A DNA stretch of 64,000 nucleotides from a virus, in the IMG/VR virus record IMGVR_UViG_3300047994_000087, positions 62,001 through 126,000 of that record. One strand, 5' to 3'. This document shows positions 2,377 to 44,316 of the stretch, one piece after another (positions within the stretch are counted from its first letter, which is position 1; each line of letters opens with the position of its first letter). The position numbers were made by a program, and so were the translations under genes. The notes under the pieces were generated by a model that worked only from the letters and a program-made list of their open reading frames with translations, ran no database searches and was not told where the DNA came from.

Positions 2377-2814
2377 ATGTTTGGACCACACTTATTAGTT
2401 TGCGGTTATAGGGCTTCTAAAAGCGCACTTGCAGATCTTGAAATGATCTACAACCTTATTGATGGTCTTCCAAATCTTGTCGGCATGACTCCAATTACTC
2501 AGTGCCAAGCTTTCCGCTATCAGGGAAAGGTCAAAGATGATTGGGGCATTACTGCAATGATCATGATTGCTGAGTCTCACATCTCTATCCATACTTTTCC
2601 AGAGAAAGGGTTCTTTGCCTTTGACCTTTTCTCTTGCAGAGACTTCAACACCGATCTAGTCGTCGATACTTTAGCTAATGCGTTCAACCTTGTTAGTGTC
2701 ATGGACATGAGCGTGCAAGTTATACATCGTGGGCGTGAGTTCGAGCGTGGAAACGTTGATCCGCCAGAAGTAGGCGGCCTACTTTATCGCCTGCATAATC
2801 ACCCAAGTGAATGA
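2377..2814 (+). CDS. speD: S-adenosylmethionine decarboxylase proenzyme
   Basis: Makes decarboxylated AdoMet, the aminopropyl donor for spermidine synthesis; polyamines help neutralise packaged DNA. 145 residues, the size of the short prokaryotic (class 1B) enzymes. The motif ESHISIHTFPEKG gives the self-cleavage site between Glu66 and Ser67, Ser67 becoming the pyruvoyl group. His72 and Cys87 sit 5 and 20 residues downstream, the same spacing as Ser63/His68/Cys83 of the Thermotoga enzyme. GAGGA precedes the ATG at 2377. No spermidine synthase is visible here, so it probably feeds the host pathway. Confidence 0.93.
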   Translation: MFGPHLLVCGYRASKSALADLEMIYNLIDGLPNLVGMTPITQCQAFRYQGKVKDDWGITAMIMIAESHISIHTFPEKGFFAFDLFSCRDFNTDLVVDTLANAFNLVSVMDMSVQVIHRGREFERGNVDPPEVGGLLYRLHNHPSE

Positions 2815-2961
2815 TTTTTCCTGGTCCCCTATGGTGGCACGCTAGGATCTAGTTATGGGCCTTGCAGGACCTCCTGGAGACCTCTGGTAAGGTCATATAT
2901 AAGGATGAGAAAGACCGGAAACACCCAATTTATGGGCAATAATAAAGGAAACATTAAGAAC

Positions 2962-2991
2962 TTGACCGTATAATAGCAGCGGTGCTATTAT
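2962..2991 (+). promoter_or_regulatory. Repeated promoter with internal dyad, copy 1
   Basis: TTGACC (2962-2967), 18-base spacer, TATTAT (2986-2991). The spacer and -10 contain ATAATAGCA and TGCTATTAT, a perfect 9-base inverted repeat around GCGG. One of seven copies in the window; it points into the gene-free stretch at 3.0-3.75 kb. Confidence 0.8.
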
Positions 2992-2997
2992 AGATAC

Positions 2998-3730
2998 ATG
3001 GAGAACGGGGACGGGACAAACGAGCCCCAAACCGCCCTCCAAGGACTCCTGGAGTCCACCCTGTGAGACGATGGTACCCCATGAAGGTGACCGGTTAAAA
3101 GCCAAGTTGTGCAGCGGGGGGAACAAGGTTCACCAGAAGTCCGAAGAGAAATTGAAGCCCTATCGGGGACCTCACTGACATCGCAACCGACGCTACAAAC
3201 GTGGCCATCGTGCCCATATATTAAACAAGCGAATCGGCTACTGGACTCTGAGGCATGACAGCTATGTGGCGCAATGCTAACAGCTACTTCAAGCGATTAG
3301 ACCAGTTTCTCTCACACTACTCAACTCAACAAGGAAGGTTCACCGGCAGGAGAAAACTGAAAAGAGGCGCCCGATATGCTAGGGCGGTACAAATCGAGCA
3401 GGGCACGTGCGGACCACTAACAAGGTCTCGACACAAGATCCCGTGAAGTCTCAGGACAATCTCTTTTCGCTAAAGCTCCAATAACTTATAATCGCAATCG
3501 CCTGGTTAGGTAGACACATGTCTTGCACCGCCACAACTTAACTAGGTAAACCCAAGTTCACCGGGGGTAGATTCCGGGCTCCTGTACGACATAAGACTCG
3601 TGTTGTGGTAATAAACTGATTCAACCCCGCACTTGGGTGCGAATGTGCACTATCGCCCGAATCGTTGAAGTGAGACCATCAGGGATGAAGGTCCGGGGAG
3701 CGAAACCCCAGCGGGCGACCAATTTATCCG
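2998..3730 (+). ncRNA. Candidate large structured non-coding RNA
   Basis: About 950 bases between speD and the gene at 3813 contain no ORF with a credible start or protein-like composition, yet copy 1 of the phage promoter reads into them. Hairpins seen: GGACTCC/GGAGTCC near 3040-3055, CGCCC/GGGCG near 3368-3386, CGCAC-TTGG-GTGCG near 3628-3641, and a compact domain at about 3653-3718 closed by TCGCCCG/CGGGCGA with inner stems GACC/GGTC and GGGG/CCCC. A short motif, AGGTTCACCRG, occurs near 3127 and 3337 and as AAGTTCACCGG near 3552. The size is in the range of the large phage RNAs GOLLD and ROOL, but I cannot assign a family. Ends are estimates. Confidence 0.5.
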
Positions 3731-3812
3731 GCTCAGTAATGGGCTGCCCATACTGGCTAGCAATAGACAACTAAATTTGTCAACCTACGCTCCCCAAAAG
3801 GAGGGCTATCGC

Positions 3813-4103
3813 ATGGAAACATCATTCTGCACTTCTGACTGCTGTCCGATTATCTCTAAGCCTATCCCGCCCATAATTGACCCTTATGGCTGGGATGCCC
3901 ACTGCTTTTACAAAGCAAACATGGAATCGCCTACTGAAGTTCTTCAATTCATTGGTCTTCGTCCTATCGATCAACCAATGATTGAGCCTGCTGTCAAAGA
4001 TCGTTACCTCGACATTCAATTACTCCGTCAGTGGCGCGACTTTGGCATCCTGAACAACCTCTACCCGTCAGACACTGCAAAACGTCTGTTCTCAGTTCGC
4101 TAA
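3813..4103 (+). CDS. Hypothetical protein
   Basis: 96 residues. The ATG at 3813 is chosen because AAAAGGAGGG lies just upstream; longer versions would run through that site. N-terminal FCTSDCCPI cluster of Cys, then a Pro-rich stretch. No family recognised. First gene of the cassette that leads to the MoxR ATPase; no promoter of the repeated type directly in front, so it may be transcribed through the RNA region. Confidence 0.65.
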   Translation: METSFCTSDCCPIISKPIPPIIDPYGWDAHCFYKANMESPTEVLQFIGLRPIDQPMIEPAVKDRYLDIQLLRQWRDFGILNNLYPSDTAKRLFSVR

Positions 4104-4176
4104 ATCCTCACACCGTGGGCACTTTTCAACCGGTGCCCATACTGAGGGGATTCACCTCTCTATCTCAATCTCTCAA
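4103..4176 (+). other. Post-gene hairpin element 1
   Basis: Directly at the stop codon: AATCCTC pairs with GAGGGGATT (two bulged G) around an inner stem TGGGCAC/GTGCCCA, followed by TCTCTCAA. The same outer stem and the TCTCTCAA tail recur at 6430-6498. No T-run follows, so it is not a simple intrinsic terminator; it may be a processing or stability element. Confidence 0.5.
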
Positions 4177-4208: not shown

Positions 4209-5282
4209 ATGCCAACAGAACTCAAACCACGTCAGGTGCTTGCCTGGATGAAATCCAAGGTCAAACAACTTACGCCTGATGGTTATACACGCCCTATGTA
4301 CGTTGCAGGCGCACCTGGGATTGGTAAGACAGCTATAGTTTATGCTCTTGCTGCCTTCCTGAACTGCCCAGTAATCACCTGGATAGCTGCAACTATGGAC
4401 CCTACTGACACTAAGTTCCCTGCCCTTGTCACCCTTCCTGACGGCACTGTTGAGCTTAAGTGGCTCACGCCCAAGGAACTCTCTCAGCCAGGACGGTTCA
4501 TACTGTTCTTGGATGAACTCCCTAACGCTGCACAGAGCGTTCTCAACAGCCTTCAGAACCTGGTGTGGACCCGCAAACTTGGTGAGTTCACTCTCTCTAA
4601 AGATTGCATCATCATTGCTGCTGGTAACCGCACCACTGACCGTGCTGGTGCTGGAAGACTGAATACAGCTATGGGCAGTCGTTTCTTGAAAGTCACCATG
4701 GTGGCTGATGTAGATGACCTCCGCGCTTGGGGTGCTCAACCAAAAAATCCTAATGATCCTAAAGGTCCATCACGTCTTCATCATATAGTTCTGGCTTTCC
4801 TCAAGTTCAGGCCTACATATCTCAACAGCTTTGATCCTAAGAAGGACTCGTTCTGCTGCCCCAGAACTCTGGAGTTCGTGAGTGATTGTATCTACGAGAA
4901 CGAAGCTAGAATCCAGGCTGGTGAAACCATCGACCGCGAGATCACAAGGGCGGATTATGAGAACGCTGGTGAAGACTTCGCTGCGGAATTCGTTCCATTC
5001 GAAAGCCTCTACACGACCGCCATTAGTCCTGACACCATACTCAGGAACCCAACGGGTGCACGCATCCCAGAAAGTCCTGACGCTAAGTGGGCAACCACTA
5101 CCGCGCTAGCATGGGCAGCTACGGCCAACAACCTTGACCTGGTACTGACCTACCTAGATCGTCTGGAAGTGGAATACTCCACCGCTGCTGTGACCGTCCT
5201 GGAGACAAGACACCCAGAACTGGCTAACAGCAAGGAGCTTACCGCCTGGAACGTCAAAATGGACCGGCTCGTAGCTGCTTAG
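4209..5282 (+). CDS. MoxR-family AAA+ ATPase
   Basis: 357-residue ATPase expected to work as a hexameric remodelling machine together with a VWA partner, encoded two genes downstream. Walker A GAPGIGKT at about residues 34-41, Walker B FILFLDELPN at about 96-105, sensor 1 IIAAGNRTTD at about 135-144, and Arg-containing GSRF near 157. Strong AAGGAGGAG site before the ATG. The MoxR-VWA pair is common in bacteria and phages and acts as a chaperone or metal-insertion device in studied cases; the substrate here is unknown. Confidence 0.88.
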   Translation: MPTELKPRQVLAWMKSKVKQLTPDGYTRPMYVAGAPGIGKTAIVYALAAFLNCPVITWIAATMDPTDTKFPALVTLPDGTVELKWLTPKELSQPGRFILFLDELPNAAQSVLNSLQNLVWTRKLGEFTLSKDCIIIAAGNRTTDRAGAGRLNTAMGSRFLKVTMVADVDDLRAWGAQPKNPNDPKGPSRLHHIVLAFLKFRPTYLNSFDPKKDSFCCPRTLEFVSDCIYENEARIQAGETIDREITRADYENAGEDFAAEFVPFESLYTTAISPDTILRNPTGARIPESPDAKWATTTALAWAATANNLDLVLTYLDRLEVEYSTAAVTVLETRHPELANSKELTAWNVKMDRLVAA

Positions 5283-5304
5283 TTTTTCCCAAGGAGAGAA
5301 GAGA

Positions 5305-5350
5305 CAGGAACCGTGGGTGGTGAGAGCCGCCTACTTCCTGGGTCTCTCAA
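5305..5350 (+). other. Post-gene hairpin element 2
   Basis: CAGGAA (5305-5310) pairs with TTCCTG (5335-5340); inside, GTGGGTGG pairs with CCGCCTAC with two G-T wobbles around a TGAGAG loop. TCTCTCAA follows, as in the elements after the genes at 4103 and 6431. The outer stem differs in sequence but has the same placement, suggesting conserved function. Confidence 0.45.
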
Positions 5351-5373
5351 AAACTAAAGACCATATTACGGAT

Positions 5374-5403
5374 TTGACTCTATAATCGCGCCACTGCTAT
5401 TAT
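5374..5403 (+). promoter_or_regulatory. Repeated promoter with internal dyad, copy 2
   Basis: TTGACT (5374-5379), 18-base spacer, TATTAT (5398-5403), with ATAATCGC in the spacer in place of ATAATAGC. Drives the gene at 5499. Confidence 0.8.
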
Positions 5404-5498
5404 AAATACATGAGGCGCAGGCCACGAGTACCTAAAACAAACGCTCTGCCCGCCACCACAATCTACTCTCACTACTGACCAAACGAGGACCTGACCCC

Positions 5499-6431
5499 AT
5501 GACCAACGGAACTATTGATAGAACTGAAGCTGTACCCCTCCATAAGCGGGCCATGCTGCTCTCCCTGAGCTTCAGCAAATGGAGTGCTAGAAAGCACGAC
5601 AAACAAGTAAGCCAGGAAGTGGCCAATACCCATGGCTTGTCTGACGTTAACTTGGGTGCTTACCGTAAGCAACTAATTGCCAAGGAAGCTTTGGATGAAA
5701 TCAACGCTCTGGACTCACAAGCCAGAACTGTGTGGATCAAATACACCAGTGCTGGTCGTAAGGAAGGAGAGCGCATTCTCTCCAATATGTTCTACACCCC
5801 CTGCACAACAGAACTTCGTACTATCCAAGCCGAACGTGAAATTGCTGTGCAAAAGTTCAAGTCTAACTTCATACAGTTCAAGGAGGATCAAAAGAAAAAA
5901 CTCAATGGCCTGTTCCGTGAGGAAGATTATCCTACCCTCCAGGAACTCGACGATAAGTTTGATATGTTAATTGACATTCAACCTATGCCTGATGCAGCTG
6001 AATTCGTAGTAGCTGGCATCGTAGACGAGGAAGTCAAACGCATTGAGGCTGCCCGTGCGGAGCAAAGTAAGAAAATGGTTGCTGACGCTATGCGCGAGAC
6101 CTGCACCCGTCTTCTGGAAACAATCACTGGCACAGAGAAAAAACCAGGGCTAATCCAGAAGCTGGCAAAGTTCGAAAAGTTAGGGTCTAGTGTTAAGCAC
6201 CCGTTCAGAGATACAGCCATATCCAATATAAAAGACATGTTGGACCTGCTTCCTGGCTTGAACTTGACCAACGACCCGAAGATCAACGATATCGCTGATC
6301 GTATCCGCAAGGAGCTTGTATCCCTGTCTTGTGAGGACCTTCGTAACGACGATACCCTCAGAGAGACGGCCATCAATAAGGCGGATGCCCTGGCTGATGA
6401 AATCACCGCCCACATGTCCAACTTCATTTAA
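5499..6431 (+). CDS. DUF3150-like helical protein of the MoxR-VWA cassette
   Basis: 310 residues, predicted almost entirely helical and coiled, no enzyme motif. The start LSLSFSKWSARKHDKQVSQE resembles the opening of DUF3150-type phage and plasmid proteins, which are found beside MoxR and VWA genes. Position between the two supports a role as adaptor or substrate recogniser for the ATPase; this is inference. GAGGA lies 9 bases before the ATG, and it has its own copy of the repeated promoter. Confidence 0.6.
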   Translation: MTNGTIDRTEAVPLHKRAMLLSLSFSKWSARKHDKQVSQEVANTHGLSDVNLGAYRKQLIAKEALDEINALDSQARTVWIKYTSAGRKEGERILSNMFYTPCTTELRTIQAEREIAVQKFKSNFIQFKEDQKKKLNGLFREEDYPTLQELDDKFDMLIDIQPMPDAAEFVVAGIVDEEVKRIEAARAEQSKKMVADAMRETCTRLLETITGTEKKPGLIQKLAKFEKLGSSVKHPFRDTAISNIKDMLDLLPGLNLTNDPKINDIADRIRKELVSLSCEDLRNDDTLRETAINKADALADEITAHMSNFI

Positions 6432-6498
6432 TCCTCGCTCGCAGGGCTGGGTAACTCCAGCCTTGACTGAGGGGATTGACCATCTTCTCATCTCTCAA
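6430..6498 (+). other. Post-gene hairpin element 3
   Basis: AATCCTC (6430-6436) pairs with GAGGGGATT (6469-6477) with two bulged G; inner stem GGCTGG/CCAGCC. TCTCTCAA at 6491-6498. Close relative of the element at 4103-4176; lies between the DUF3150-like gene and the next promoter. Confidence 0.5.
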
Positions 6499-6506
6499 CA
6501 TTCACC

Positions 6507-6536
6507 TTGACCCCTTAATAGCAGTAGTGCTATTAT
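6507..6536 (+). promoter_or_regulatory. Repeated promoter with internal dyad, copy 3
   Basis: TTGACC (6507-6512), 18-base spacer with TTAATAGCA, TATTAT (6531-6536) inside TGCTATTA. Drives the VWA gene, with a leader of about 20 bases and an AGGAGG site. Confidence 0.8.
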
Positions 6537-6560
6537 CAAGGTATCTTCTAGGAGGTGCCA

Positions 6561-7877
6561 ATGAGCATCGACACCAAAGAACTAGTATCAGCCACCAGGA
6601 TTAGACTTCTTTCAAAGCATCCATGGTTCGGACAACTCTCTATGAACCTCAACATCGTTGAGAATTCCGACATTGAAAACTTCAACACTGACGGCACTGA
6701 CCTGGAAATCAATCCTGAACACTTCGCCAAACTGCCCCGCCTTGAGCGTGAAGGCTGTATGGCCGTCAAAGTTTTCCAATGTGGCATGGGACACCCTTAT
6801 AGACAAGGTGGCCGCGATGCTGAAAAGTGGAATGAAGCCTCCAGACAAGTGGCGCATGCCCACATATCTAAGGCCGGTCTTACGCTTCCTGCCAGCTGCA
6901 AAGTTGATCCTAAGTACTTGGAGATGTCTGTAGAGCAGGCTTACTCCTATAACGAAGCTCAAGCCCGTAAACAACAGCAACAGAATCAAGGTGGACAGCA
7001 GGGGCAGCAGCCCCAACAGGGTGGCCAACCCCAGCAAGGTCAAAACGGACAACAAGGGAACCAACCAGGCAAGCCTGGAAGTCAGCAATCTGGACAAGGC
7101 CAGGGCAACCCAACACAAGGCAAAGGAGCCTCTGCTCCTGCCACTGGCACCATATCTAAACCCAAGCCAGCTACCCCCAAGAAAGATAATAAGGGTCAGA
7201 AAGAGGAAGGCCAAGCGCCTGCTAAGCGTATGTCTGAAACTGACTGGGCTGATGCTCGTGAACAGGCCACCAACATGTCTAAGAAAGCGGGTTTCGGATC
7301 TGCCAGCATTGAAATGGCCGTCAAAAATGAGCGCGTAGCTACCAACAACTGGAAGGAAGAAACCCGTGAGTTCGTTGTTCAGACTGTGGTGTCTGACGTG
7401 AGCTGGGCTAAGCAAAGTCGCCGTGGCCGTGCTCAAGGACTGATTCTACCTGGACCAGTCAAAGAGAATATCGGACCTATCGTAGTTGTGTTTGATACCA
7501 GCGGTAGTGTCTACTCCGATGTCAGAACGGTGGAAGACTTCAGTGCTGTAGTCACAACAATCGCTCGTGAAGTCCGCCCGGAGAAGCTCATAGTTATCTA
7601 CTGCGACACTAAGGTGACTGCGGTCGACGAGTATGACACCTACGACATGGAAGACATCAAGGTCAGACCACTGGGCAACGGTGGCACCGCTTTCCAGCCT
7701 GCCTTCGATTACATCGAGCAAATGGACGCCCAGCCCAATGTTATCCTCTACTTGACCGACTTGATAGGAGCAGCCCCAATTGAGCCGGAAGTGCCAGTCC
7801 TCTGGGTAACCCCTGCTTGGGTAAAGACACAAGCTTGGTTCGGACGGACCATAAACATTGACAGACACGCATCATAG
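6561..7877 (+). CDS. VWA-domain protein, partner of MoxR ATPase
   Basis: 438 residues. The N-terminal about 125 residues resemble the metallopeptidase-like domain that precedes VWA in DUF2201 proteins (RDAEKWNEAS...), but the HExxH zinc motif is not present, so it is probably inactive. A 60-residue Gln/Gly low-complexity linker follows. The C-terminal VWA domain has a complete MIDAS: DTSGS near residue 312, Thr in GGTAF near 374, Asp in LTDL near 398. Such proteins bind substrate through a metal ion and are handled by the MoxR ATPase. Start at ATG 6561 behind AGGAGG; the GTG at 6555 overlaps that site. Confidence 0.85.
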   Translation: MSIDTKELVSATRIRLLSKHPWFGQLSMNLNIVENSDIENFNTDGTDLEINPEHFAKLPRLEREGCMAVKVFQCGMGHPYRQGGRDAEKWNEASRQVAHAHISKAGLTLPASCKVDPKYLEMSVEQAYSYNEAQARKQQQQNQGGQQGQQPQQGGQPQQGQNGQQGNQPGKPGSQQSGQGQGNPTQGKGASAPATGTISKPKPATPKKDNKGQKEEGQAPAKRMSETDWADAREQATNMSKKAGFGSASIEMAVKNERVATNNWKEETREFVVQTVVSDVSWAKQSRRGRAQGLILPGPVKENIGPIVVVFDTSGSVYSDVRTVEDFSAVVTTIAREVRPEKLIVIYCDTKVTAVDEYDTYDMEDIKVRPLGNGGTAFQPAFDYIEQMDAQPNVILYLTDLIGAAPIEPEVPVLWVTPAWVKTQAWFGRTINIDRHAS

Positions 7878-19009: not shown

Positions 19010-19097
19010 TGGTGCACACGGCTAGATTTGAACTAGCGAACCCTTTCGAGATGGAGGTTACAGCTCCACTGTTTTAACCAGACTCACACACGTGTAC
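19010..19097 (-). tRNA. tRNA-Tyr(GTA)
   Basis: Acceptor GTACACG/CGTGTGC, encoded CCA, anticodon loop CTGTAAC on a 5-base stem TGGAG/CTCCA, long variable arm, T-arm GCTAG-TTCAAAT-CTAGC. Confidence 0.9.
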
Positions 19098-42363: not shown

Positions 42364-44316
42364 TTAGATTTTAACTCTGAGTGTTCTGGTGAACTTACCT
42401 TCTACCTTAACTACCATACTGGCTCTCTGTGTCTCAGAGAATCCCAATCCAGACAACTGGTTAGGGTTATCTTCGATCTTCAGCTTGCCTCCAACAATCT
42501 CGAACACCTTACGGTGCTGGTCGAACTCCTGTTTCAGGAACTCATTAAAGAACGGACGCACAAACTCATCAGACAGGCACTTCTCCAGCATGAACATGTA
42601 GTGCTTGTTTCCTACCGGCTTGTCCCAGTGATTAGGCGATAGAAGTATCTTAGTCACTTTATGGAACTGGTTGGTCTTTACCCCCCATTTCTCACGAGAT
42701 ACTACGTTCGACTTACTCTCTCCTGCGAACTTAAGTCCGTCTGTTTTCGAATACTCAAACTTGGCGATTTCAAATGTGCCACCGTTGTGTGGATTTGTCT
42801 TAGAATCGAAGTCGAAGGTCTCACCATTGCACTCAATCTGCACAACAAATCCTTGATAGGTTGTCTCACGCTTGTTGTAGTTGTTTACTAGGACAGTATA
42901 AGTCCCTTCCTTCATGCGACTCTTATTTGTCCAGATTATGTTTTCTACTGGAGTCCTCGAACGTCCGTATCCAGCATTCATATCCACGTCTAAGGTACCG
43001 GAAGTAGGGCTGACTTTGCTCATGTAGCTAATCACGTTACCACCTGGTTCTTTGACGTGTATATCCAAGTCATCAAAGTTGTGCCATGACAGAGAAGTAC
43101 GCAGCTCTCCTACAACGTTACCACCAGCCTCTTTCACCCGCTCTTTGATGGAGTCCGTGACTGCGCCGGTATAACTCCAGGAGAAGCTATTGTCCCACTT
43201 GAACATGGAAGGAGCTTCTGGATTCTGCGCTGCCACCAATGATACGAAGTTGTTCTGATGAGAGTTCTCCAGCAGTATTGACACGCTTTTAGCGTGAGGC
43301 ACTACGTTGGCCAGGAAGTCTTCAATGCCAATCTCTTCGATCTTCGAAAACGATTTAGGGTTGACGATAGTGTCTTTGGCCACCTGGTCGAACACATCGG
43401 TTAACACTTGTGGGCGGTCCTGGAATAGCACGTCACACGCTCTGATGTCAGTCTCAATAGCGTATCTGCGCTCCAGAGATTCCAACAATCCAAGTGCCTT
43501 GATCTTCTCTTTAGCCTCTTCAGCCATGCGCGGAGTAACCAAAGATGTAGGTCTCTTGTAGTTGGTAGGCGCCACAACTCTTTCGAACTTAGTCACAGCG
43601 GTATCTAGATCAACTCCAGCACTAAGATCAATCAATAAGGTTCCTATTGCGGTGTTTCTGATACGAGACACCACAGTGCCAGCTTCCTGAGAAGTGGCCC
43701 AGCTGTATGCTTCTTGAGTCAGTAGATGCTCGAACGTAACCGGTTCAGGAGCTAGTCTCTTGTACTGACGTTGGAGCAGAACGAACTTATTGAGGATCGG
43801 TTCGAACTCTTTGCCCCTATAGAGTGAGTTCTGACTGATAAGCTCCAACACTGTCTCAGTAGCGTCCAAGGTCAGCTCATCTAAGCTTCTCTGGAGAACA
43901 TTCTTATCGTCACGTGCTTGTCCAAGCTTTGTGGGTAGATCTTTGTTGTCGACTACGAACTTGTTAGGCACCTTGAGATACAAGTGACTCCAGAATACAG
44001 AACGTTTCTCATCAAAGTTTTTGTCTGTTCCTGCCTTGTCAAACACTGAGTAGAACAAGTCTGTAACTGGTCTGCTATGAATGTACGCACTAAGTGCATC
44101 GCTTACAGCTTTAAACATCTCAGGAACGTCCAGGTCGTCCCAAAGGGAGATCACTTTGTTTTCCTTGATGGTCACAATCCCTGAGTACTGACGCAAGAAG
44201 CTCTTACAGCAGTTACATGTATGCTCCTGCCGGTATGCTTCAGGGAACGCATTGATGTAAACGTCCCACACTTCATCCCCGTCAACCGCGACATAGAATA
44301 GTCTGTCTTTAGACAT
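42364..44316 (-). CDS. Large protein with YfaP/DUF2135-like domain
   Basis: 650 residues. CNCCKSF near residue 33 may bind metal. Residues about 430-530 (LSWHNFDDLDIHVKEPGGNV, GTLDVDMNAG, GTYTVLVNNY) follow the DUF2135/YfaP beta-sandwich pattern. The frame is open and protein-like for about 29 codons before ATG 44316 but lacks a standard start; AAGGA sits 10 bases before an ATT at about 44376, so the true start may be longer. Function unknown. Confidence 0.65.
   Translation of the reverse strand: MSKDRLFYVAVDGDEVWDVYINAFPEAYRQEHTCNCCKSFLRQYSGIVTIKENKVISLWDDLDVPEMFKAVSDALSAYIHSRPVTDLFYSVFDKAGTDKNFDEKRSVFWSHLYLKVPNKFVVDNKDLPTKLGQARDDKNVLQRSLDELTLDATETVLELISQNSLYRGKEFEPILNKFVLLQRQYKRLAPEPVTFEHLLTQEAYSWATSQEAGTVVSRIRNTAIGTLLIDLSAGVDLDTAVTKFERVVAPTNYKRPTSLVTPRMAEEAKEKIKALGLLESLERRYAIETDIRACDVLFQDRPQVLTDVFDQVAKDTIVNPKSFSKIEEIGIEDFLANVVPHAKSVSILLENSHQNNFVSLVAAQNPEAPSMFKWDNSFSWSYTGAVTDSIKERVKEAGGNVVGELRTSLSWHNFDDLDIHVKEPGGNVISYMSKVSPTSGTLDVDMNAGYGRSRTPVENIIWTNKSRMKEGTYTVLVNNYNKRETTYQGFVVQIECNGETFDFDSKTNPHNGGTFEIAKFEYSKTDGLKFAGESKSNVVSREKWGVKTNQFHKVTKILLSPNHWDKPVGNKHYMFMLEKCLSDEFVRPFFNEFLKQEFDQHRKVFEIVGGKLKIEDNPNQLSGLGFSETQRASMVVKVEGKFTRTLRVKI

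What the first reader, a model, noticed from the sequence alone, without database searches (positions are those of the whole stretch)
2998..3730. Promoter-driven gene-free stretch with many hairpins: candidate large phage RNA
About 730 bases follow a regulated promoter and have no credible gene. A compact 66-base domain near 3653-3718 closes with a 7-base-pair stem and two inner stems, and several further perfect hairpins and a thrice-repeated GGTTCACC-like motif are present. Large ornate RNAs such as GOLLD and ROOL occur in phages at this size, but I could not match either.
Basis: partly seen in the sequence, partly recalled or inferred. Interest (0 to 1): 0.75.

Follow-up and report, generated by a model that had tools for sequence, protein, structure and literature searches.

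The report
Orphan large structured phage RNA candidate
In an uncultivated 147-kb phage, a promoter of a phage-wide regulon is followed by about 800 bases that encode no protein and probably make a large folded RNA of a sequence family not found anywhere else searched; its predicted fold also covers the ribosome-binding site of the next gene.

Summary
The gene-free stretch is real. A promoter with a palindromic operator (2962-2992), one of about ten in a genome-wide phage regulon, is followed by ~785-815 nt with no gene in any frame. All other regulon promoters lie 9-270 nt from their gene. The + strand is strongly T-poor (lowest 0.4% of 730-nt windows on either strand) and folds more definitely than shuffled versions (1 of 100 as definite); its minimum energy is unremarkable (z -1.3). 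The 66-base domain exists, but is only weakly better than chance and is predicted to dissolve once the transcript passes ~3795. The GGTTCACC repeat is within chance. No Rfam family, GOLLD and ROOL included, matches. I found no homologue in GenBank phages, plasmids or fetched IMG/VR relatives, so covariation cannot be tested. New here: in every energy model the 5' end (3034-3040) pairs with the Shine-Dalgarno of the next gene (3800-3806), and no terminator separates the two. Best reading: a large structured RNA at the head of a regulon transcript, GOLLD/ROOL/ICP1-like in size and setting but in none of those families. Whether it acts as a free RNA, a translation-controlling leader, or both is open. 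All structure is predicted; no transcript has been seen.

The parts
2962..2992 (+). Promoter with -35 TTGACC (2962-2967), 18-nt spacer, -10 TATTAT (2986-2991) and palindromic operator TATAATAGCA-gcgg-TGCTATTATA (2969-2992); the best-matching of about ten promoters of the same design in the genome
2999..3812 (+). Gene-free transcribed stretch (start ~2998-2999 inferred from the -10 box): candidate large structured RNA, or leader of the gene at 3813
3034..3040 (+). 5' strand of predicted closing helix P1 (GCCCTCC), pairs with 3800-3806
   Evidence: probability 0.99-1.0 in 8 parameter/temperature settings; 18 of 1000 shuffled leaders have a match this long in their first 60 nt
3800..3806 (+). 3' strand of P1 (GGAGGGC) = Shine-Dalgarno of the gene at 3813
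   Evidence: sequence
3043..3142 (+). Predicted arm 1 (helices 3043-3047/3138-3142, 3059-3064/3114-3119); varies between energy models
3145..3312 (+). Predicted arm 2 (10-bp helix 3145-3154/3303-3312; inner helices 3191-3197/3265-3271, 3208-3214/3252-3258); varies between energy models
3349..3479 (+). Predicted arm 3 (10-bp helix 3358-3367/3460-3469; hairpin 3412-3415/3424-3427 stable in all models)
3490..3643 (+). Predicted two-hairpin arm 4: 12-bp helix 3500-3511/3536-3547, 8-bp helices 3550-3557/3631-3638 and 3585-3592/3600-3607; fairly stable across models
   Evidence: used for covariance model R1
3653..3718 (+).
3695..3795 (+). 8-bp helix GGGGAGCG 3695-3702 / CGCTCCCC 3788-3795, exclusive with the 66-base domain; 16 of 300 shuffles give as long a match
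3813..4103 (+). Downstream small gene, 96 aa, SD AAAAGGAGGG; no homologue found; codon score in the normal range for small ORFs of this phage
4209..5282 (+). MoxR-like AAA ATPase (phrog_1297), next gene of the probable operon

Best explanation
The stretch encodes a large (~770-815 nt) structured non-coding RNA, transcribed from a phage regulon promoter at ~2999 and running without a terminator into a small gene and a MoxR-like ATPase gene. Its ends are predicted to be held together by helix P1 (3034-3040/3800-3806), enclosing several arms, so the RNA has a closed multi-arm architecture like the large ornate RNAs of other phages. Because the 3' strand of P1 is the Shine-Dalgarno of the next gene, the folded RNA should keep that gene off until the RNA is cleaved or remodelled. 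The folded RNA itself is taken to be the main product. Shown: promoter, regulon, absence of coding signal, composition, absence of known families. Predicted: P1 and the arms. Inferred: transcription, processing and function.
For: The regulon promoter has the best operator match in the genome and an outlying 784-nt distance to the next gene, against 9-270 nt elsewhere. No frame is coding. T content 0.188, rank 107 of 29,204 windows. Positional entropy 0.545 against 1.025 +/- 0.197 in shuffles (1 of 100 as low) on the transcribed strand; the reverse strand is ordinary. P1 has probability >=0.99 in all 8 energy settings. No + strand terminator-like site between 2999 and 3812. Precedent: ICP1's most abundant transcript is an ~800-nt RNA from an ORF-less ~1-kb gap (PMC7567579).
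Against: No homologue, hence no covariation. MFE is not exceptional (z -1.3). Half of the arms change with the energy parameters. The entropy test does not single out the ICP1 RNA used as a positive control, so it is not a general discriminator. No terminator, unlike the ICP1 RNA, whose gap ends in an evident one (sequence). No transcript data.
Confidence: 0.45

Rival explanations
1. Long cis-acting 5' leader: the ~815 nt are the untranslated leader of the 3813-4103/ATPase operon, and the fold mainly controls translation. P1 masks the Shine-Dalgarno, and a late switch from the 66-base domain to the 3695-3702/3788-3795 helix sets the timing during transcription.
For: No terminator; SD fully paired in the ensemble while 0 of 60 shuffled leaders pair it as fully; P1 stable in all models; the 66-base domain is predicted to be lost between 3' ends 3786 and 3797.
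Against: An 800-nt leader is very long for a cis switch (own knowledge). A 7-nt match to the SD region occurs somewhere in 88 of 300 shuffled leaders, though within the first 60 nt in only 18 of 1000. P1 stays formed whether or not the 66-base domain is forced, so the predicted switch does not free the SD. The coincidence was found after looking.
Confidence: 0.28
2. Non-functional or decaying DNA: an old gene or spacer without function, transcribed only on the way to the next gene.
For: No homologue; MFE unremarkable; triple motif and 66-base domain near chance.
Against: Phage genomes rarely keep ~800 nt of unused sequence (own knowledge). No six-frame remnant matches any PHROG. The promoter is intact and the composition is distinctive on one strand. 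Entropy is low on the sense strand only.
Confidence: 0.17
3. DNA element such as an origin of replication, packaging or attachment site.
For: Lies ~1.7 kb from the integrase gene; gene-free.
Against: Cumulative GC skew has its extremes at 41.9 kb and 139.5 kb, not at 65 kb. No iteron-like repeats. The integrase has its own adjacent gap 1264-1512. Strand-asymmetric composition behind a promoter points to RNA.
Confidence: 0.05
4. Short peptides encoded in the stretch (63-aa ORF 3255-3446 or smaller) are the product.
For: ORFs of 30-63 aa exist on the + strand.
Against: Codon scores -0.3 and below; no family match; no good ribosome-binding site before the 63-aa ORF (sequence).
Confidence: 0.05

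Closest known systems
ICP1 ~800-nt non-coding RNA (Vibrio phage ICP1; PMC7567579)
   Same: Phage genome; ~800-nt transcript from an ORF-less gap of about 1 kb; no Rfam family reaches its cut-off; not next to tRNA genes
   Different: No sequence similarity (nhmmer/blastn); ICP1 RNA ends at an evident intrinsic terminator and is proven by RNA-seq; different gene neighbours; not T-poor (T 0.279)
GOLLD RNA (RF02032)
   Same: Phage/prophage RNA of ~800 nt or more with many stems (PMC12286853); the present phage also has a tRNA island
   Different: No match to the GOLLD model anywhere in the genome; tRNA island is ~16 kb away; no evidence for a cage
ROOL RNA (RF03087)
   Same: Large structured phage-associated RNA of unknown function
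   Different: No match to the ROOL model; smaller model (574 positions)
Structured mRNA leaders that mask the ribosome-binding site
   Same: Predicted pairing of the Shine-Dalgarno with an upstream strand; no terminator before the gene
   Different: Far longer than usual (own knowledge); no ligand, no conserved core; predicted switch does not release the SD

Membership tests
GOLLD | Match to the conserved 3' region covariance model (RF02032) | tested here: not met
   none, even at E 10 in the own-genome search
GOLLD | Encoded near a tRNA island | tested here: not met
   Nearest tRNA gene in the window at 19010, ~15-16 kb away
GOLLD | Homo-multimeric nanocage | not testable with these tools
   needs purified RNA (cryo-EM, mass photometry)
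ROOL | Match to covariance model RF03087 | tested here: not met
   no control genome rang for ROOL, so sensitivity there is unproven
Any Rfam 15 family (OLE, HEARO, raiA, introns, riboswitches, tmRNA, RNase P) | Covariance-model match | tested here: not met
   no match at E <= 5 on either strand of 2800-3900
Large structured phage ncRNA (general kind) | Long gene-free stretch behind its own promoter in a phage | tested here: met
Large structured phage ncRNA (general kind) | Helices supported by covariation | not testable with these tools
   no homologue found by any search made
Large structured phage ncRNA (general kind) | Discrete abundant transcript | not testable with these tools
   no RNA-seq; no terminator found
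RBS-masking leader | SD paired in the predicted fold | tested here: met
RBS-masking leader | Alternative fold that frees the SD | tested here: not met
   P1 kept in the alternative fold examined

The most novel reading that the evidence does not exclude
A new class of large ornate phage RNA, unrelated in sequence to GOLLD, ROOL and the ICP1 RNA, expressed as part of a phage regulon and physically joined to a small gene and a MoxR/VWA module whose ribosome-binding site forms its closing helix, so that maturation of the RNA and translation of the module are coupled.
Probability: 0.2. Interest if true: 0.75.

Novelty: new variant of a known kind. Interest (0 to 1): 0.45.

Why it matters
Large phage RNAs are few, abundant and of unknown function; two of them form RNA cages (PMC12286853). 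One more unrelated sequence of the same size class would suggest that phages repeatedly evolve such RNAs. Here the regulon and the tie to a translated operon give concrete handles (operator, P1, downstream reporter) for asking what such an RNA does.

Tried and rejected
Homologue searches that found nothing: blastn of the whole stretch against GenBank phages and plasmids and of its halves at E 10 (short hits, the listed ones inside annotated coding genes); blastn/nhmmer in 34 related phage records; nhmmer in 80 ATPase loci; single-sequence covariance model of 3490-3643 over 2.1 Mb of held sequence. IMG/VR pattern scans with the promoter (none), the 66-base-domain loops (three chance hits) and paired GGTTCACC motifs (nearly all inside coding genes or repetitive protein genes).

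Close protein relatives of SpeD, ATPase and capsid were not found in IMG/VR. The ATPase/310-aa/VWA module exists in other contigs (L110-L115, G019), but without this RNA in front.

Rejected: three-fold internal repeat; antisense to another part of the phage (nothing long); replication origin (GC skew); GOLLD/ROOL. An early use of 3814 as a start was off by one; the start is 3813.

Full report
Setting. The window is positions 62,001-126,000 of a 146,741-base IMG/VR virus record. The phage is a myovirus-like Caudoviricete with integrase, tail sheath, ribonucleotide reductase, DNA polymerase and about 20 tRNA genes. Its closest named capsid relatives are Rhizobium phages of Kleczkowskaviridae at 40% identity; nothing near it is in GenBank. 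Around the finding lie an integrase (34-1263), a SpeD-like AdoMet decarboxylase (2377-2814), the gene-free stretch, a 96-aa gene (3813-4103), a MoxR-like ATPase (4209-5282), a 310-aa protein (5499-6431) and a DUF2201/VWA protein (6555-7877).

Promoter and regulon. At 2962-2992 stands TTGACC-18-TATTAT, with a perfect 10-bp inverted repeat inside and over the -10 box. The same design occurs about ten times in the genome, upstream of genes. The distance to the next gene is 9 to 270 nt, except here, where it is 784 nt to the longest ORF frame and ~820 nt to the ATG. The shuffled expectation for the pattern in the window is 0.01. The promoter is therefore real in design, and the long gap behind it is the outlier.

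No gene. Codon scores trained on 25,066 codons of the phage are negative in all six frames from 2960 to ~3700, at the level of the known wrong frames of neighbouring genes. Stop-to-stop pieces match no PHROG. The + strand has T 0.188 over 2998-3727, rank 107 of 29,204 windows counting both strands; the other low windows overlap mostly protein genes.

Structure. Over the full leader the minimum energy is only slightly below shuffles (z -1.3; 9 of 100), and 400-nt windows do not stand out from the rest of the genome. What stands out is how well defined the fold is: mean positional entropy 0.545 against 1.025 +/- 0.197, 1 of 100 shuffles as low, while the reverse strand is ordinary (1.29; 45 of 60 as low). 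As a caution, the proven ICP1 RNA does not show low entropy (1.16 against 1.13), so this measure neither proves nor excludes function. Half of the predicted arms depend on the energy parameters. Those that hold in most settings are P1 (3034-3040/3800-3806, 0.99-1.0 in all eight), 3412-3427, 3500-3547, 3550-3638, 3585-3607, 3766-3781 and 3695-3702/3788-3795.

The 66-base domain. It is there as described, but modest: 21 of 500 shuffles are as stable. It is predicted at P 0.84-0.89 for most of its stem in transcripts ending at 3735-3786, and at 0.03 or less once CGCTCCCC 3788-3795 has been made. Forcing it in the full leader costs 5.5 kcal/mol. The GGTTCACC repeat is within chance for the window.

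The missed feature. The most robust helix pairs the 5' end of the transcript with GGAGGGC, the Shine-Dalgarno of the gene starting at 3813, and there is no + strand terminator-like site between promoter and gene. A match this long within the first 60 nt occurs in 18 of 1000 shuffles, anywhere in the leader in 88 of 300. The coincidence was noticed after folding, so it is suggestive only. It makes the stretch either a large RNA whose closing helix ends on the next gene's ribosome-binding site, or a very long regulatory leader. The alternative fold examined keeps P1, so no SD-releasing switch was found.

Known families. Nothing in Rfam 15 matches at E <= 5. GOLLD and ROOL models, searched by accession in the whole genome, give nothing; the ROOL control did not ring in any control genome, so that single test is weaker. 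In size and setting the nearest known thing is the ~800-nt RNA of phage ICP1, that phage's most abundant transcript, itself likened in length to GOLLD and ROOL (PMC7567579). No sequence is shared with it. GOLLD and ROOL form RNA-only cages of unknown function (PMC12286853).

Homologues. None was found, by the searches listed under Tried and rejected. Relatives of the ATPase/VWA module (L110-L115) and of the capsid lack the stretch at detectable similarity. The tools may also hide records very near the window. Without homologues covariation cannot be tested, and this caps the confidence.

Verdict. Large RNA is the best reading, but rests on indirect evidence. Free RNA versus leader is undecided. 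I put about 0.7 on some RNA-level function (free or leader), 0.45 on the large-RNA statement as written, and 0.28 on a pure leader.

Noticed in passing
window 2962, 5374, 6507 (+); 15234, 18876, 47499, 54512 (-); genome 3166, 61193, 141676 (+): A phage-wide set of promoters TTGACNNNATAATAGCNNNNGCTATTATA with a palindromic operator between -35 and -10: a regulon under one unknown regulator.
   Followed up: partly
window 4104-4150 and 6432-6476: Two similar post-gene elements of the form TCCTC - GC-rich hairpin - TGAGGGGATT directly after the stop codons of 3813-4103 and 5499-6431; a possible terminator or processing element of this phage.
   Followed up: partly
window 4209-7877; L110-L115; L074: A three-gene module (MoxR-like ATPase, 310-aa protein of unknown family, DUF2201/VWA protein) recurs in unrelated phage contigs with the middle protein conserved at 24-36%; this middle protein has no Pfam or PHROG match.
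   Followed up: partly
L081:12306-12371 (-), IMGVR_UViG_3300022700_000208: Type II hammerhead ribozyme match (39.8 bits, above Rfam's cut-off) in a capsid-related phage contig that also carries a tRNA array.
   Followed up: no
window 42364-44316 (-): A 650-aa protein of phrog_1735 (unknown function) is ~46% identical to proteins of Klebsiella phages although the rest of the phage is far diverged; some records call it a DNA-directed RNA polymerase, but no Pfam family matches.
   Followed up: partly
window 2377-2814: SpeD-like S-adenosylmethionine decarboxylase gene directly upstream of the RNA promoter, a possible polyamine-related auxiliary gene.
   Followed up: no
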